Assembly: GCF_002149035.1 (NCBI RefSeq)
Contig: NZ_NGFP01000011.1
Span: forward strand, 1-43,076
Reading direction: 5' to 3'
Source of the DNA: Streptosporangium minutum
Lineage (GTDB): Bacteria; Actinomycetota; Actinomycetes; Streptosporangiales; Streptosporangiaceae
DNA length: 43,076 nucleotides
The first letter of the stretch is position 1. Each line of letters opens with the position of its first letter. Positions 1,436 through 40,317 of this stretch are shown one piece after another. The notes under the pieces were generated by a model. The model saw only the letters and a list, made by a program, of their open reading frames with translations, searched no databases and was not told the origin of the DNA. Made by a program: the position numbers and the translations under genes.

Positions 1436-1538
1436 CGGTCACCTGCCGTCCGTGGCCGGGTGAGCGCGGGGGCGCGCGACCGTGACCGCGCGCAACCTCG
1501 GTCGCACGCCCCCGCTCATTCAGCCGTCCCGGTCCGGA

Positions 1539-2018
1539 TCAGTAGACGACCGGCACGTCGACGGAGACGGAGTTCGGGCCGGGCAGGGGCGTGCCGCCGC
1601 CGCCGGGGCCCGCGGGGCCGGGGGTGATCACTACTTTGGCGCGGACCGTGGTCCCGGAGGCCACGGTCGTGGTGACGCCCTCGACGGTGAAGGAGTTGTT
1701 CCAGATGCTCAGTGCCCGGCTCCCCGAGCCGAGCAGGGCGCCGCCGACGATCGTGCCGGAGACCTCCGCGCCGACGTTGCGGGGGTTGACCGGGGGCTCG
1801 GAGATGCCGAGGGCGCCGACGATCCCGTAGACCCGCACCTCGCTGCCGGTGACGTCCACACACGCCTTGACGTTCAGACCCTGGATCGGGCCGCCGGTGC
1901 TGCAGGTGGTCGTCGTCGTGAGAGTCGCGGCCGAGGCGGGAGCGCTCATGGCGAGCCCGCCCGCGATGGCGGCCCCGGCCATCAGGAGCGCGAGACCACG
2001 GTTGACGATCTGGTTCAT
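1539..2018 (-). CDS. Small secreted protein of unknown function
   Basis: Encodes 159 residues. The start was chosen at the ATG preceded by GGAGGA at good spacing; a longer frame upstream lacks a signal-peptide start. The N-terminus MNQIVNRGLALLMAGAAIAG followed by APASA is a classic Sec signal peptide with an AxA cleavage site near residue 30. The mature part is rich in Thr, Val and Gly with two cysteines (TTCSTGG and VKACVDV), suggesting a beta-rich extracellular domain. Near the C-terminus is a Pro/Gly linker (GPAGPGGGGTPLPGP). I do not recognise the family. It sits downstream of the subtilase gene on the same strand but about 370 bp away, so it is probably transcribed separately. Confidence 0.75.
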   Translation of the reverse strand: MNQIVNRGLALLMAGAAIAGGLAMSAPASAATLTTTTTCSTGGPIQGLNVKACVDVTGSEVRVYGIVGALGISEPPVNPRNVGAEVSGTIVGGALLGSGSRALSIWNNSFTVEGVTTTVASGTTVRAKVVITPGPAGPGGGGTPLPGPNSVSVDVPVVY

Positions 2019-2403: not shown

Positions 2404-5400
2404 CGGGACGCTCGGAGATGCGGATGGCGTTGACCATGGGATTGCCGACCCGCTCGGCGAAGCGCACGTTGAGCTGGCCGTCGGTGACCTTCACCGTGTA
2501 CTGCCGGTTGACGGCGGTGTAGGTGCCGGTCTCCAGAGCCAGGTCCAGCGCGGGGATCGCGAGCTGGCCCTCGACGAGGACGTCGAAGACGCGCTTGCCC
2601 GCACGTGTGTCCCGGGTGTCGGCGAAGCCCAGCTCGACGGTGTAGGTGCCGTTGGGCACCTGGTCGAACCGGTACTCCAGCATCGACTCCCGAGCACTCC
2701 TGAACAGCGCCTGCTCGGTGGTGCCCTTGATCGTCTTGCTGGTCGTGCTCGTCTTGTTGCTGCCCACGTAGCCGTGGCCGCCCGCGCTGTACTTGCGGTC
2801 GGCGGTCCAGCGGTCGCCGACGGCGTCGACGACGTCCTTGGTGCCGCCCGCGTCGACGGCGACCTGGTGCCTGGGCACCACGACCGTCACGGTGATCTCG
2901 ATCTGCGGGTTGCGGCCGCTCGCCGAGCGCACCAGCAGCTTGCCGGTGCGGACGGCGCCCGGCTGGACGCCCGCGCTGGAGGCGGTGACCTTCAACGTCA
3001 CCGACTTGCCCGAGCCGAGCTCGCCCGCGGCGGGCGTCACGCTCAGCCAGCCCTGGGCGGGATCGGTCACGACGGTGTAGGTCGTGGCGCCTCCCAGGTT
3101 GGCCAGATCGACGGTGCCGGTCCTGGTGGACTCGGCCGGCATCACCAGGGTCAGCTCACCGGCCGAGGCCGTCACCCGGCCGGTGGCCAGAGCGGTGTCG
3201 ACCCGGGTCAGGGTCCCGGCGGTGACGGTGACCTCCTGGGTGAAGGTCCCGTAGTTGTCCTTGGAGACCTCGACCTGGTAGTCGCCCACCAGAACCTGCC
3301 CGAGGAACGTGCCGCTCTCCCCGGTGGTGAAGGTCGCCACGTCACCCACCTTGACCGTCGCGCCCGCCAGCGGCTTGCCGTCGTTGGCGTCGGTGACGGT
3401 GCCGGTCAGCAGCCCGTGCCGGCTCGCGGCGAAGGTCAGGCTCTGGCCGTCGGCGAGCGCGGCGCTGTTGTGGGAGTACTGCAGCGCGTCTGTGCCGCCC
3501 GGGCTCTCGACGCCCACCGTGGCGCTGGTCCCGGAGGCGCGTTCGCTGGTGATGCCGCGGTAGCGGAATCCGATCGAACCGTCCTCGCCGAGCAGCGTCG
3601 AGAAGGAGATTCGCGGGGCGGCGTCGGAGTAGAACCGGGCGTTGCGCCATTCGATGACGAAGGTGCGCTTGGGCGCGGTTCCGATGGTGGCGGTGTAGAC
3701 CCCTGACTGGTCGTCCAGCACCAGGTCGTCCCAGTAGGGATAGATCGCCGCGTTGGGCGCGGCGGCGGAGGGCAGGGCGCTGTTGCCGGCCGTGGTGCTG
3801 CTGGCGGCGAAGTTCAGGAAGCCGTTGCTGCTGATCCAGCCGCTGGTGTAGCCGCTCCCGTAGAACGGGAAGGTGAACGGCAGCGTGACCGGCTGGGCCG
3901 CGTCGTCGCCGGTGAGCGAGTGCTTGTCGGTGCCCGCGACGTACGCCTCGGCGGCGGCGGCGCAGGTGTAGCCGAAGGAGTCGGCCCGGCGCGGCAGGTC
4001 GACGTCCTTGGTCAGGTCGCCGTTCACCGTGATCGGCACGGTGAGAGCGCCCGCGCACCGGGAGACCGGGGTGATCCTCAGCTCGTGGCCGCCGTTCGGC
4101 AGCGTGAGCCGGTACCGTCCGGCGGCGTCGGTGACCGCGCTGACCGGCGTGCCCACCGCGGCCACCGTGGCGCCCGCCTCGGGCGCGCCCGCGGCGGTGA
4201 CCGTCCCCGACACCGTGCCCGCGGGCCGCTGCGTCAGCGGCACGTCCTTGGTGACGCTCTGGTCGGCCACGACGGTGACGGTCGCCGTCGCGTCCTCGTA
4301 GCCGAACTTCTTGACGGTGATCTGGTAGTCGCCCGCCAGCAGGCGCGGCAGCGCGTACGTCCCGTCCTGCCCGGTGGTGACCGTACGGCTCAGCGGACCG
4401 GTGACGGTGAGGGTCGCCGCGGCCACCGGCGTGCCGCCGGAGGTGACGGTGCCCTGCAGCGCGCCGAGCGCCCCGACCGGGGCGGCCTGGACCGCGGCGA
4501 ACGTGTCGAGCTTGCCTTCGCCCCAGACGTTGTTGTCGGCGGCGGTGCCGCCGCAGCGGGTGTCGTCGACGTCGACCGCGGTCCGATCGAGCAGCTCCCG
4601 CGTGGCGGCGATGTCGCCCTGCAGGGCCGGCGAGGCGGACCACATGAGCGCCACGGTGGCCGCCACGTGCGGGCTGGCCATCGACGTGCCGGAGAAGGAG
4701 TCGTAACCGCCGGGCACCGACGAGCGCACGTTGACGCCGGGCGCCGCGAGGTTGGGCTTGATCTCGCCGTTCTCACCGGAACCGCGGGTGGAGAAGCTCG
4801 CGATGGCGTTGTTGACGTCGAAGGCGCCGGCGCTGTAGCTGGAGCCGTACTGGCCGGGCGAGCCGCTGGAGTTGCAGCCCGCGCCGGTGACGTTGCCGTT
4901 GGAGAAGGCCGGGAAGATGCCCGCCGCCACCCACGCCTCGACGATCTCCTTGTACCAGGCGTCGAAGCCGGCGCCGCCCCAGGAGTTGTTGACGATGTCC
5001 GGCGCCAGGTCGGGGCGCGGGTTGTCGCCGTTCAGGTCGGTGGGCGCGAGCACCCACTGCCCGGCGGCGAGCAGCGAGGCGTCGGAGCAGCTGTTGGTCT
5101 CGCAGCCCTTCGCCGCGATCCACTTGGCGCCGGGGGCGACGCCGATGGTGTTGGCGCCCTCGCCACCCACCATGGTGCCCATCGTATGGGTGCCGTGGTC
5201 GTTGTTGTCGCACGGCGCGGCGCTCGGGCACACACCCGCCGGGTCGAACCAGTTGTAGTCGTGCTCGACGCTGCCGTCGGCCTTCTTGCCGCGATACTGC
5301 GCGGCCAGCGCCGGGTGGTCGAACTGGACGCCGGAGTCGATGTTGGCCACGACGACGCCCTCACCGCGGGTGCCGAGCTCGCTCCAGACCCTCGGGGCGT

Positions 5401-38619: not shown

Positions 38620-38761
38620 CTCCTCACCGCCGGACCGCCGCAGGCCGCAGGGCCCTCTCGGGGCGCGATCACCCCCAGATCCCGGCCGCCCTCCGGTGCG
38701 GAGGACCGCGGGAGGAGGACGGGGCTCGATGGATCCGGCCCCGATGGCGTTAACTATGGCC

Positions 38762-39049
38762 ATGAACAAGCGCGAGCTGATCGAGAAGGCCGCGGCTGAG
38801 GCGGGGCTCAGCCGGCGGCAGACCGCCGCCGCCCTGGAGGCGATCCTGGGGACCATCCAGACGGCCGTGGCGGCCGAGGACAAGGTCGCGATCCCCGGCT
38901 TCGGGTCCTTCGAGATCGTGCACAAGCCGGCGCGGACCGGACGCAATCCGCAGACCGGCGATCCCCTGGAGATCGCCGAGACCTGGACGGCCAAGTTCAA
39001 GCCGAGCCCGGGGTTCCTGGGCCTCATCCGGCAGCGCAAGAAGGACTGA
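38762..39049 (+). CDS. hup: HU family DNA-binding protein
   Basis: 95 residues: MNKRELIEKAAAEAGLSRRQ, DKVAIPGFGSFEIVHKPARTGRNPQTGDPLEI and the basic end RQRKKD. The beta-arm signature GFGSFEIxxxxARxGRNPxTG is complete. This is the short, ordinary HU, without the lysine-rich tail of HupB/HupS. It binds and bends DNA. ATG 38762 lies about six bases after TTAACT, so it may be leaderless; ATG 38756 is an alternative. Together with mIHF 0.7 kb away, two nucleoid proteins are encoded close together. Confidence 0.95.
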   Translation: MNKRELIEKAAAEAGLSRRQTAAALEAILGTIQTAVAAEDKVAIPGFGSFEIVHKPARTGRNPQTGDPLEIAETWTAKFKPSPGFLGLIRQRKKD

Positions 39050-39150
39050 CCGCTCCTCCTCCCCCGAGCGTCGACGCCGCGCGCCGCCGTACGGAAGCAG
39101 GACGCCGCACCGGAACCGGAGCGGGGCGGAGGCGGGCCGGGACAGGCGAC

Positions 39151-39184
39151 GGCCCCCGGGGAGGTTGTCCATTCCCCGGGGGCC
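39151..39184 (+). terminator. Terminator after the HU gene
   Basis: 12-bp perfect stem GGCCCCCGGGGA / TCCCCGGGGGCC with a 10-nt loop, followed by TTGGGT. It separates the HU gene from the tRNA-like region. Confidence 0.75.
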
Positions 39185-39242
39185 TTGGGTGCCGCCATGT
39201 CGCGGCGTCAGCGCGTTTAAGAGGGCCGGTCATCTCTGACGA

Positions 39243-39316
39243 TGTCGTGCTCTGCCATTAAGCTACGAACGCATGTGGAGCGCCCAGCGGGACTCGAACC
39301 CGCACCCGACGATCAC
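39243..39316 (-). tRNA. tRNA-like unit B with permuted halves (3' half precedes 5' half)
   Basis: On the minus strand the 3' half comes first: GTGAT then CGTCG (39311-39307), a T arm GCGGG-TTCGAGT-CCCGC (39303-39287), acceptor strand TGGGCGC (39286-39280), T, and CCA (39278-39276). After CAT comes a 5' half: acceptor GCGTTCG (39272-39266), TA, D arm GCTTAATGGCAGAGC, A, and anticodon-stem strand CGACA (39247-39243). The acceptor strands pair over seven positions (three wobbles) and the anticodon stem over four of five. GTGAT equals the end of a tRNA-His (GTG) loop. U33 is not evident. Leader and trailer pair as described in the findings. A functional tRNA would need rearranging or splicing. 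Confidence 0.45.
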
Positions 39317-39383
39317 TGCCCGCCCTCGGTCGATCTGACGCTCGGCGGCGAATGCTGAACCTGGAGCGAGAGTCTGAGCTTGA

Positions 39384-39466
39384 GCGGCTGCCTCTGCCAG
39401 TTGGGCTATCCCGGCGCGGAGAGTGCCGGGAGAGGGAATCGAACCCTCACTTGGACCGCGTGTCAG
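39384..39466 (-). tRNA. tRNA-like unit A with permuted halves, tRNA-Val(GAC)-type loop
   Basis: On the minus strand the 3' half reads: loop CTGACAC (39466-39460), anticodon-stem strand GCGGT, variable CCAAGT, T arm GAGGG-TTCGATT-CCCTC (39448-39432), acceptor TCCCGGC (39431-39425) and A. Eight bases later the 5' half reads: acceptor GCCGGGA (39415-39409), TA, D arm GCCCAACTGGCAGAGGC, A, and stem GCCGC (39388-39384). The acceptor pairs perfectly over seven bp and the anticodon stem over five (one wobble). CTGACAC is exactly the usual tRNA-Val(GAC) anticodon loop. Each canonical element is present, only in permuted order. There is no encoded CCA. Confidence 0.55.
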
Positions 39467-39534
39467 GCTGACATTTCAGTTTCAGCTTCCGCGCTTTCGC
39501 GCGTCCCCGCGCTCCCACGGGGAGTCTTGAGAGG

Positions 39535-40269
39535 CTACCCCAGGAGGTAGCCGAATATCCTGTCACCGATGCGCCGGTCGGCGACCTCGGTGCCGTTGGC
39601 CTCCTCGCGGGCGAACTTCACGGCGTCCTGCAGCTTGGTGACCCGCTCCAGGAGCTCGTTGATCCGCTTGCGCGGGACGGCGCCGGAGAAGGCGACCTTG
39701 GTCCAGAAGCCGACCACGATGTCCTCGTGGTAGACCTCGACCTGGGCCGGGTGCTTGTCGGTCGCCTCGGCCTTGACGTGGTTGCGGGGCACCTTCTTGG
39801 TCCGGGTCGTCTTGACCGGCTCGGTCCGCCAGCAGTCGGTCGACTGGTCCAGCGTCCACGTCTCCGCCGCGTCGAGCACGGGCAGCTTGGAGACGAAGGT
39901 GTGCAGATCGACGAGCTGCTTCTCCAGGAAGAGCAGGTAGGTGACCGGCACGTTCTCCAGCAAGGTGGTGCCGTCCACCATGACGTCGGCCCGCGCGACG
40001 CAGTTCGCCCAGTCCTTGGTGGCGGTCACGTCGAACAGCCTGGTGAGCGCGGTGCCGAGCTGCTTGAGCAGATCCTCCGCCTGGACCTGCACGCGCGTCG
40101 ACTCGGCCGGCAGGTGCTCGCCCTCGTCGTCGACCGGCTGATAGGTCCGGGAGATGCCCGACAGCAGAGCGTTCTTCTGGATCGTGTGATACGCGTCGGT
40201 CACCTTGCGCTGGGTGTCGGACTTGACGCCCTTCTCCACGGCGAGGATCTGGTTCAACTTGGTCGCCAT
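39535..40269 (-). CDS. Conserved hypothetical protein (DUF-type, 244 residues)
   Basis: The product starts MATKLNQILAVEKGVKSDTQ and continues with YHTIQKNALLSGISRTYQP, then VMVDGTTLLENVPVTYLLFLEKQL, and a C-terminal helical stretch. I recall it as a widespread actinomycete protein of unknown function. No signal peptide, membrane segment or catalytic motif is visible. TATCGT lies seven bases before ATG 40269, so it is probably leaderless; a GTG at 40278 is possible. It lies upstream, on the same strand, of the tRNA-like region and ends one base before it. Confidence 0.75.
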   Translation of the reverse strand: MATKLNQILAVEKGVKSDTQRKVTDAYHTIQKNALLSGISRTYQPVDDEGEHLPAESTRVQVQAEDLLKQLGTALTRLFDVTATKDWANCVARADVMVDGTTLLENVPVTYLLFLEKQLVDLHTFVSKLPVLDAAETWTLDQSTDCWRTEPVKTTRTKKVPRNHVKAEATDKHPAQVEVYHEDIVVGFWTKVAFSGAVPRKRINELLERVTKLQDAVKFAREEANGTEVADRRIGDRIFGYLLG

Positions 40270-40317
40270 GGAGGTCACGATATCGGGAAGATCACCCCGT
40301 ACTCACCTGCTTTTAAC

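What the first reader, a model, noticed from the sequence alone, without database searches (positions are those of the whole stretch)
39205..39486. Two tandem tRNA-like units with circularly permuted halves and complementary leader/trailer arms
Seen directly: on the minus strand the order is 3' half A, 5' half A, 3' half B, 5' half B. No D-arm half lies before the first, and no T-arm half lies after the last. Acceptor strands match within each unit as GCCGGGA/TCCCGGC (7/7) and GCGTTCG/TGGGCGC (7/7 with wobbles). Anticodon stems also match (GCCGC/GCGGT; CGACA/CGTCG 4/5). A's leader (39486-39477) pairs with A's trailer (39363-39354) at 9/10 positions. B's leader pairs with B's trailer in two blocks: 39341-39335 with 39211-39205 (7 bp) and 39327-39322 with 39226-39221 (6 bp). 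Closer to A's junction, AGC/GCT and GTC/GAC are separated by a bulge, resembling a relaxed bulge-helix-bulge. Established knowledge: such permuted tRNA genes are known in algae and archaea, and permuted two-piece tmRNA in some bacteria. I know of none for tRNA in bacteria.
Basis: partly seen in the sequence, partly recalled or inferred. Interest (0 to 1): 0.93.

Follow-up and report, generated by a model that had tools for sequence, protein, structure and literature searches.

The report
Paired tRNA-mimic RNAs beside DUF7873
Beside the gene of an uncharacterised protein (DUF7873) this soil bacterium encodes two small RNAs in which the parts of a tRNA are joined in swapped order; the same protein-plus-RNA block recurs in many actinobacteria and phages, and it likely makes tRNA look-alikes that would work together with that protein rather than tRNAs that read codons.

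Summary
On the minus strand, 39201-39496, lie two tandem RNAs, each with T-arm, acceptor stem and D-arm of a tRNA in circularly permuted order, on a long leader/trailer stem. This is the architecture of bacterial Y RNAs (Rfam YrlA matches both units weakly), which normally partner Ro60. Here the neighbour is DUF7873, and no Ro60/TROVE gene was found in this genome. The pairing is not local: in 172 fetched DUF7873 loci a permuted unit lies just downstream on the same strand in 80 of 80 bacterial genomes, 69 of 79 viral contigs and 13 of 13 phages (one doubtful), against 4 of 516 shuffles. Unit B covaries at 30 of 31 base pairs across 71 selected sequences, every leader/trailer pair included. 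Putative anticodon loops are not conserved, and ordinary tRNA-Val(GAC) and tRNA-His exist elsewhere. Best reading: a Ro60-independent, Y-RNA-like ribonucleoprotein of DUF7873 plus two tRNA mimics with different basal motifs. Protein binding, processing and function are untested. The paper library holds no paper naming DUF7873.

The parts
39535..40278 (-). DUF7873 gene (Pfam PF25283), predicted protein partner of the RNAs
   Evidence: hmmscan E 1.3e-118; adjacent and co-directional with permuted units in homologous loci
39347..39496 (-). RNA A: permuted tRNA-like RNA with leader and trailer (approximate ends)
   Evidence: YrlA match 39367-39470, 21.9 bits, E 0.026; homologues aligned and folded; RNAfold rod with tRNA-like head
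39477..39486 (-). RNA A leader arm, pairs with 39354-39363 (9 of 10)
   Evidence: sequence; 5 pairs of this stem kept in 17 of 17 aligned sequences, nearly invariant
39432..39448 (-). RNA A T-arm
39425..39431 (-). RNA A acceptor 3' strand
39416..39424 (-). RNA A linker between the acceptor strands (first base = discriminator position)
39409..39415 (-). RNA A acceptor 5' strand
   Evidence: 7/7 pairs
39390..39406 (-). RNA A D-arm
39364..39377 (-). RNA A conserved trailer motif (YGCTC core), putative protein site
   Evidence: YGCTC in 75 of 88 distinct first units (55 of 55 genomic, 20 of 33 viral), 4 of 85 second units
39354..39363 (-). RNA A trailer arm
39201..39350 (-). RNA B: permuted tRNA-like RNA (approximate ends)
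   Evidence: YrlA match 39217-39328, 29.5 bits, E 1.6e-4; model R2 141.8 bits, though the window is one of R2's 22 training rows
39335..39341 (-). RNA B outer stem 5' arm, pairs with 39205-39211
   Evidence: 6 of 6 modelled pairs show double changes in 71 sequences
39328..39334 (-). RNA B internal-loop motif, 5' side
   Evidence: TC[GA]A in 54 of 71
39319..39327 (-). RNA B inner stem 5' arm, pairs with 39221-39229
   Evidence: 9 of 9 modelled pairs show double changes in 71 sequences
39287..39303 (-). RNA B T-arm
39280..39286 (-). RNA B acceptor 3' strand
39273..39279 (-). RNA B linker, begins NCCA
39266..39272 (-). RNA B acceptor 5' strand
   Evidence: 7 of 7 pairs with wobbles
39249..39263 (-). 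RNA B D-arm
39221..39229 (-). RNA B inner stem 3' arm
39212..39220 (-). RNA B internal-loop motif, 3' side (TYAARMG)
   Evidence: 68 of 85 distinct second units, 2 of 88 first units
39205..39211 (-). RNA B outer stem 3' arm
39150..39186 (-). GC-rich hairpin after RNA B, possibly the 3' end of the transcript (no T run; the terminator scan reports none)
   Evidence: sequence and similar hairpins seen by eye in some homologues; scan negative

Best explanation
The locus encodes two tandem structured RNAs, each carrying T-arm, acceptor stem and D-arm of a tRNA in circularly permuted order on top of a long basal stem, and together with the neighbouring DUF7873 protein they likely form a Y-RNA-type ribonucleoprotein of tRNA mimics rather than decoding tRNAs. 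Shown here: the conserved RNA structures (covariation for unit B) and their recurrent place behind DUF7873. Inferred: (1) DUF7873 binds the basal stems, at the RNA-A motif (YGCTC) and the RNA-B internal loop (TCRA / TYAARMG); (2) tRNA 5'- and 3'-end enzymes such as RNase P cut out the short linker, leaving a nicked two-piece mimic with a free 3' end; (3) the tRNA-like head docks or baits an enzyme that handles tRNA, as the Y RNA head docks PNPase in the Ro60 complex; in phages this would serve the upkeep or protection of the phage tRNA pool.
For: Both units match Rfam YrlA (E 1.6e-4 and 0.026). Ro60-linked RNAs of related bacteria score only 30-47 bits with that model where they match, DUF7873-linked ones 22-37; a model built from unit B alone finds Ro60-linked RNAs full length, e.g. 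L059 at E 1.7e-6, and full-length B in 38 of 50 viral and phage loci given. Unit downstream of DUF7873 on the same strand: 80 of 80 genomes, 69 of 79 viral contigs, 13 of 13 phages; shuffled 4 of 516; opposite strand 6 of 172. Test in 148 genomes not chosen by the locus: 12 of 12 DUF7873 genes have a core-model hit within about 350 nt downstream. Covariation: 22 B units 97.6% paired, slid versions 40-46%; 71 selected units 97.2%, 30 of 31 pairs with double changes, score 0.842 vs 0.230 shuffled. C56 and A21 (numbering recalled), which the scan did not demand, are invariant in 69 aligned cores. Independent of Ro60: TROVE not found in 10 of 23 DUF7873 genomes and 36 of 43 viral records, many of them fragments. 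Processing: C at position 74 in 78 of 88 and 82 of 85 distinct units; one viral unit A (L197) carries a whole tRNA-Thr inside its linker. Phage context: 36 of 43 DUF7873 viral records have two or more tRNA matches.
Against: No expression, binding or processing data. DUF7873 has no significant fold match, so RNA binding is only inferred. Full CCA in the linker in only 28 of 88 and 23 of 85 units. Ro60 is present elsewhere in 13 of 23 DUF7873 genomes, so it could act in trans there. 10 of 79 viral contigs gave no unit to the script (two of these, L176 and L214, end at the contig edge; L164, L179/L180 and L215 show one by eye; L152 shows none). YGCTC is missing from 13 of 33 viral first units. 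For unit A the covariation method gives 9 of 24 pairs with double changes, a nearly invariant basal stem, and an invariant 4-pair helix from the D-arm to the trailer instead of the anticodon-like stem. The minimum-energy fold of B (-61.0) does not contain the tRNA-like head; with the head enforced it is -60.0. Most tRNA-like residues were demanded by my scan, so their constancy is partly by design. The tRNA richness of DUF7873 phages has no matched control.
Confidence: 0.62

Rival explanations
1. Genuine permuted tRNA genes: the precursor is cut at the leader/trailer junction and joined there, and gives tRNA-Val and tRNA-His.
For: Permuted order, paired arms next to the junction, NCCA in B; anticodon-like stem of 5 of 5 pairs in 61 of 93 and 57 of 87 homologous units.
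Against: Residue 33 and the 'anticodon' are not conserved; ordinary tRNA-Val(GAC) and tRNA-His present; conservation lies in the basal stem beyond the junction.
Confidence: 0.03
2. Ordinary Ro60 Y RNAs working with a Ro60 encoded elsewhere; DUF7873 is an accessory or an unrelated neighbour.
For: Same architecture; in 5 of 7 viral records with both genes DUF7873 and TROVE lie within 7.5 kb (cut-off chosen after seeing the gaps); L030 and L174 hold both modules side by side.
Against: No TROVE found in this genome, in 10 of 23 DUF7873 genomes or in 36 of 43 viral records; different basal motifs; RNA found beside DUF7873 in 162 of 172 loci.
Confidence: 0.13
3. The RNAs are cut into two-piece tRNAs that are charged and used by EF-Tu, the ribosome or an aminoacyl-tRNA-dependent enzyme, like two-piece tmRNA.
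For: C74 nearly always, CCA in 51 of 173 distinct units, tRNA nested in one linker.
Against: No constant acceptor identity element: 46 and 56 different acceptor stems in 100 two-unit loci, position 3:70 varies; no conserved anticodon; no tmRNA match at E up to 10. A tag frame was not sought.
Confidence: 0.12
4. A 3' untranslated element of the DUF7873 mRNA, bound by the protein to control its own gene.
For: Directly downstream of DUF7873, same strand.
Against: Two separate RNAs with distinct motifs, a linker that can hold a tRNA gene; in some loci a few hundred bases separate gene and RNA.
Confidence: 0.08
5. Rearranged tRNA relics under free drift.
For: Looks like halves of tandem tRNA genes.
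Against: Permuted units in 162 of 172 loci and 30 of 31 pairs of unit B covarying.
Confidence: 0.01

Closest known systems
Bacterial Y RNA, YrlA (Rfam RF02553), with Ro60/Rsr (TROVE)
   Same: Basal stem from paired 5' and 3' ends, then T-arm, acceptor stem and D-arm in permuted order (PMC8394870 and PMC11472068, passages); several copies beside the protein gene in some relatives; also reported in phages (PMC7765460, passage).
   Different: Partner gene is DUF7873, not Ro60; where both units are found, A and B carry two different basal motifs; scores below the Rfam cut-off; occurs in genomes and phage records in which no Ro60 was found.
Circularly permuted tRNA genes of algae and archaea (PMC3978253, passages on bacteria only)
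   Same: 3' half before 5' half; leader pairs with trailer (the latter feature recalled).
   Different: No conserved anticodon loop or U33; linked protein gene; the leader/trailer stem is the conserved part.
Two-piece (permuted) tmRNA of some bacteria (named in PMC3978253; details recalled)
   Same: Permuted order; linker between acceptor strands probably removed.
   Different: No tmRNA match; D-arm and T-arm both full tRNA-like.

Membership tests
Bacterial Y RNA (YrlA) | permuted tRNA-like head: T-arm, acceptor stem, D-arm in this order | tested here: met
Bacterial Y RNA (YrlA) | 5' and 3' ends pair into a long basal stem | tested here: met
   covariation of both stem segments in unit B; for unit A paired but nearly invariant
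Bacterial Y RNA (YrlA) | encoded beside a Ro60 (TROVE) gene | tested here: not met
   neighbour is DUF7873; no TROVE match in this genome (548 contigs, 99.98% complete)
Bacterial Y RNA (YrlA) | reaches the Rfam gathering score (69 bits) | tested here: not met
   29.5 and 21.9 bits; Ro60-linked RNAs of relatives also fail it with 30-47 bits, so the test separates poorly
Bacterial Y RNA (YrlA) | binds Ro60 and PNPase; carries tRNA modifications | not testable with these tools
   needs biochemistry
Permuted tRNA gene (algae, archaea) | halves in swapped order | tested here: met
Permuted tRNA gene (algae, archaea) | joined halves give a 7-base anticodon loop with U33 and one anticodon per orthologous gene | tested here: not met
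   U33 in 2 of 50 and 13 of 51 units; 20 and 26 different triplets
Permuted tRNA gene (algae, archaea) | bulge-helix-bulge splice site and splicing endonuclease | not tested
   no endonuclease search and no motif search was run
tmRNA | match to the tmRNA family | tested here: not met
   ARAGORN none; no RF00023 row at E up to 10
tandem ordinary tRNA genes or relics | complete tRNAs around the junctions, or drift | tested here: not met
   ARAGORN finds none here, while 12 of 14 fetched core-model hits away from DUF7873 and TROVE are tandem tRNAs; covariation

The most novel reading that the evidence does not exclude
DUF7873 is a second, Ro60-unrelated protein partner of permuted tRNA-mimic RNAs: a two-component ribonucleoprotein with a dedicated RNA pair, spread through actinobacteria and through phages of actinobacteria, proteobacteria and cyanobacteria, that matures by tRNA end-processing into a nicked two-piece tRNA mimic and, in phages, guards the phage tRNA array against tRNA-cutting host defences.
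Probability: 0.35. Interest if true: 0.9.

Novelty: new variant of a known kind. Interest (0 to 1): 0.8.

Why it matters
A protein family with thousands of relatives (7639 of 7999 scored candidates passed) and no assigned function gains a testable partner: two RNAs that ARAGORN and Rfam's cut-offs do not report. It would show that the Y-RNA design, a permuted tRNA head on a protein-binding stem, is not tied to Ro60, and gives an independent system in which to learn what such tRNA mimics do. The phage setting makes a role in the contest over tRNA directly testable by gene removal.

Full report
What is there. The minus strand of 39201-39496 holds two tandem units in which the 3' half of a tRNA precedes the 5' half. 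Each has a T-arm with a standard loop, a 7-bp acceptor stem split by a linker of 9 (A) or 7 (B) bases, the two bases that follow the acceptor in tRNA, and a D-arm. ARAGORN and Rfam at its cut-offs are silent. With relaxed scoring the best Rfam family for both is YrlA, the bacterial Y RNA: 29.5 bits (E 1.6e-4) for B and 21.9 bits (E 0.026) for A. Upstream, on the same strand, lies a DUF7873 gene; its closest listed relative, 93% identical, is from Streptosporangium.

Conservation. A DNA search found matches in 18 of 60 relatives, own genome included (E 1e-3 or better). The 12 of 60 genomes with DUF7873 are exactly the 12 whose DNA match is 140 bases or longer. The only four plasmid-collection records that match the RNA are the only four that match the protein. 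Behind DUF7873, within 900 nt and on the same strand, a permuted unit is found in 80 of 80, 69 of 79 and 13 of 13 of these 172 loci (L225 among the 13 is doubtful by eye). Controls: shuffled 4 of 516, opposite strand 6 of 172. In an earlier count with linkers up to 70 bases and at least 500 nt downstream, 79 of 79 genome loci, 64 of 77 viral loci and 13 of 13 phages had a unit, and 61, 38 and 5 had two or more; controls there: upstream same strand 2 of 79, 11 of 77 and 2 of 13; downstream opposite strand 3 of 79, 3 of 77, 0 of 13; shuffled 7 of 790, 1 of 770, 0 of 130. Of the ten negative viral loci, L164, L179/L180 (unit B) and L215 show units by eye, L176 and L214 end at the contig edge (L177, with the same start as L176, has two), L152 shows none, and L153, L167 and L216 are not explained (one search did not print L153).

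RNA structure. In 22 actinobacterial B units, 31 predicted pairs hold in 97.6% of cells (77.9% when partners are shuffled, 40-46% when slid), with double changes at 23. Extended to 71 B units, 30 of 31 pairs have double changes, all 6 of the outer and all 9 of the inner leader/trailer helix included; covariation 0.842 against 0.230 shuffled, none of 500 shuffles as high. For that call I gave 71 sources picked from what I had (window, 4 plasmid records, 34 of 80 genome loci, 29 viral and 3 phage loci, the viral and phage ones because they had matched full length), and the alignment is fitted to the model; RNAalifold on the same alignment returns the same 31 pairs. One search was not fitted to a model, though its structure came from the same alignment. 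Unit A is more conserved in sequence: 9 of 24 pairs with double changes, basal stem nearly invariant, and RNAalifold puts an invariant 4-pair helix between D-arm and trailer where I expect the anticodon-like stem. The two units are distinct: YGCTC in the trailer of 75 of 88 distinct first units (55 of 55 genomic, 20 of 33 viral) and 4 of 85 second units; TYAARMG in 2 of 88 and 68 of 85. An anticodon-like stem of 5 of 5 pairs occurs in 61 of 93 and 57 of 87 units, against 30% and 26% with partners exchanged between loci.

Not a decoding tRNA. In units with that perfect stem at position 27, residue 33 is U in 2 of 50 and 13 of 51, and the would-be anticodons take 20 and 26 forms. The genome has 61 tRNA matches, among them tRNA-Val(GAC) in three clusters and one tRNA-His(GTG).

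Specificity and kinship to Y RNA. A 58-position model of the permuted core was run over 148 Actinomycetes genomes, DUF7873 and TROVE over the same set. All 12 DUF7873 genes have a hit within about 350 nt downstream on their strand. By my count of the printed rows, 65 hits exceed 38 bits: 21 beside DUF7873, 21 within about 3 kb of TROVE, 23 beside neither. Of 14 of these 23 that I had as loci, 12 are tandem ordinary tRNAs (a false match by design), one overlaps a single tRNA (L251), one is an orphan unit (L249); nine were not examined. Weaker hits occur in every one of the 148 genomes and were not sorted. Ro60-linked RNAs score 30-47 bits with YrlA where they match, DUF7873-linked ones 22-37, several A units not at all, and the full-length B model also finds Ro60-linked RNAs (L059, L052, L060, L061, L250; E about 1e-6 to 1e-5). 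So the two groups share a design while their basal motifs and protein partners differ. TROVE was not found in 10 of the 23 distinct DUF7873 genomes, this one included, nor in 36 of 43 DUF7873 viral records (many are fragments). Where both occur in a virus they are close: 5 of 7 within 7.5 kb, chance 2e-4 under random placement, with the cut-off chosen after seeing the gaps. In Nonomuraea gerenzanensis (L030) and one viral contig (L174) a Ro60 gene with its own Y-RNA-like hits and the DUF7873 module stand within a few kb.

How it likely works. Shown: structure, conservation, linkage. Inferred: DUF7873 binds the basal stems at the two motifs; tRNA end-processing removes the linker. For the latter, C at position 74 is kept in 78 of 88 and 82 of 85 distinct units and full CCA in 28 and 23, and in L197 a complete tRNA-Thr gene sits between the two acceptor strands of unit A, which should not mature without cuts on both sides. 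C56 and A21, which my scan did not demand, are invariant in 69 cores (the other T-loop, D-loop and position-8 residues were demanded), so the head should be seen by tRNA enzymes, as YrlA is by modification enzymes and PNPase (PMC8394870, passages). In phages, DUF7873 often sits in or next to tRNA gene arrays (9 of the 13 annotated stretches by my reading), 36 of 43 viral records have two or more tRNA matches (40 of 43 at least one over the cut-off), and ARAGORN finds 5.8-7.3 tRNAs per 10 kb around viral copies against 0.31 around bacterial ones (no matched phage control). This suggests service to the phage tRNA pool, for example as bait for tRNA-cutting nucleases; this last step is a guess.

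Verdict. A real, strongly conserved pairing of a protein family with two tRNA-mimic RNAs, undescribed as far as the held library shows; a new variant of the Y RNA kind, not a member of that family as defined by Ro60 linkage, and not a permuted tRNA gene.

Noticed in passing
L197 3832-3964: A complete tRNA-Thr(TGT) gene (3862-3934) is nested in the linker of a permuted unit A in a viral contig.
   Followed up: yes
L174 2995-6734; L030 645-6294: DUF7873 module and a Ro60 gene with Y-RNA-like hits of its own lie within a few kb of each other.
   Followed up: partly
L222 1069-1597 (Gordonia phage Phendrix): tmRNA match of 89 bits inside the phage tRNA array; no such feature in the record's annotation of that stretch.
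   Followed up: no
L249 about 1500-1557, minus strand: Orphan permuted unit with no ordinary tRNA in the fetched stretch and no DUF7873 or TROVE match in its genome (G108); three neighbouring ORFs have no Pfam match.
   Followed up: partly
L066 3776 and 3924: Two extra permuted-unit hits further downstream in Spongiactinospora, with no unit B hit at the usual distance; not examined.
   Followed up: no
L179 and L180, about 50-390 nt after DUF7873: An HNH-endonuclease-like reading frame, by eye, seems to lie between DUF7873 and the RNAs.
   Followed up: no
window 38696-39049: HU-like DNA-binding protein gene runs convergently towards the RNAs; it is absent from the annotated Streptomyces flavofungini locus.
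   Followed up: no
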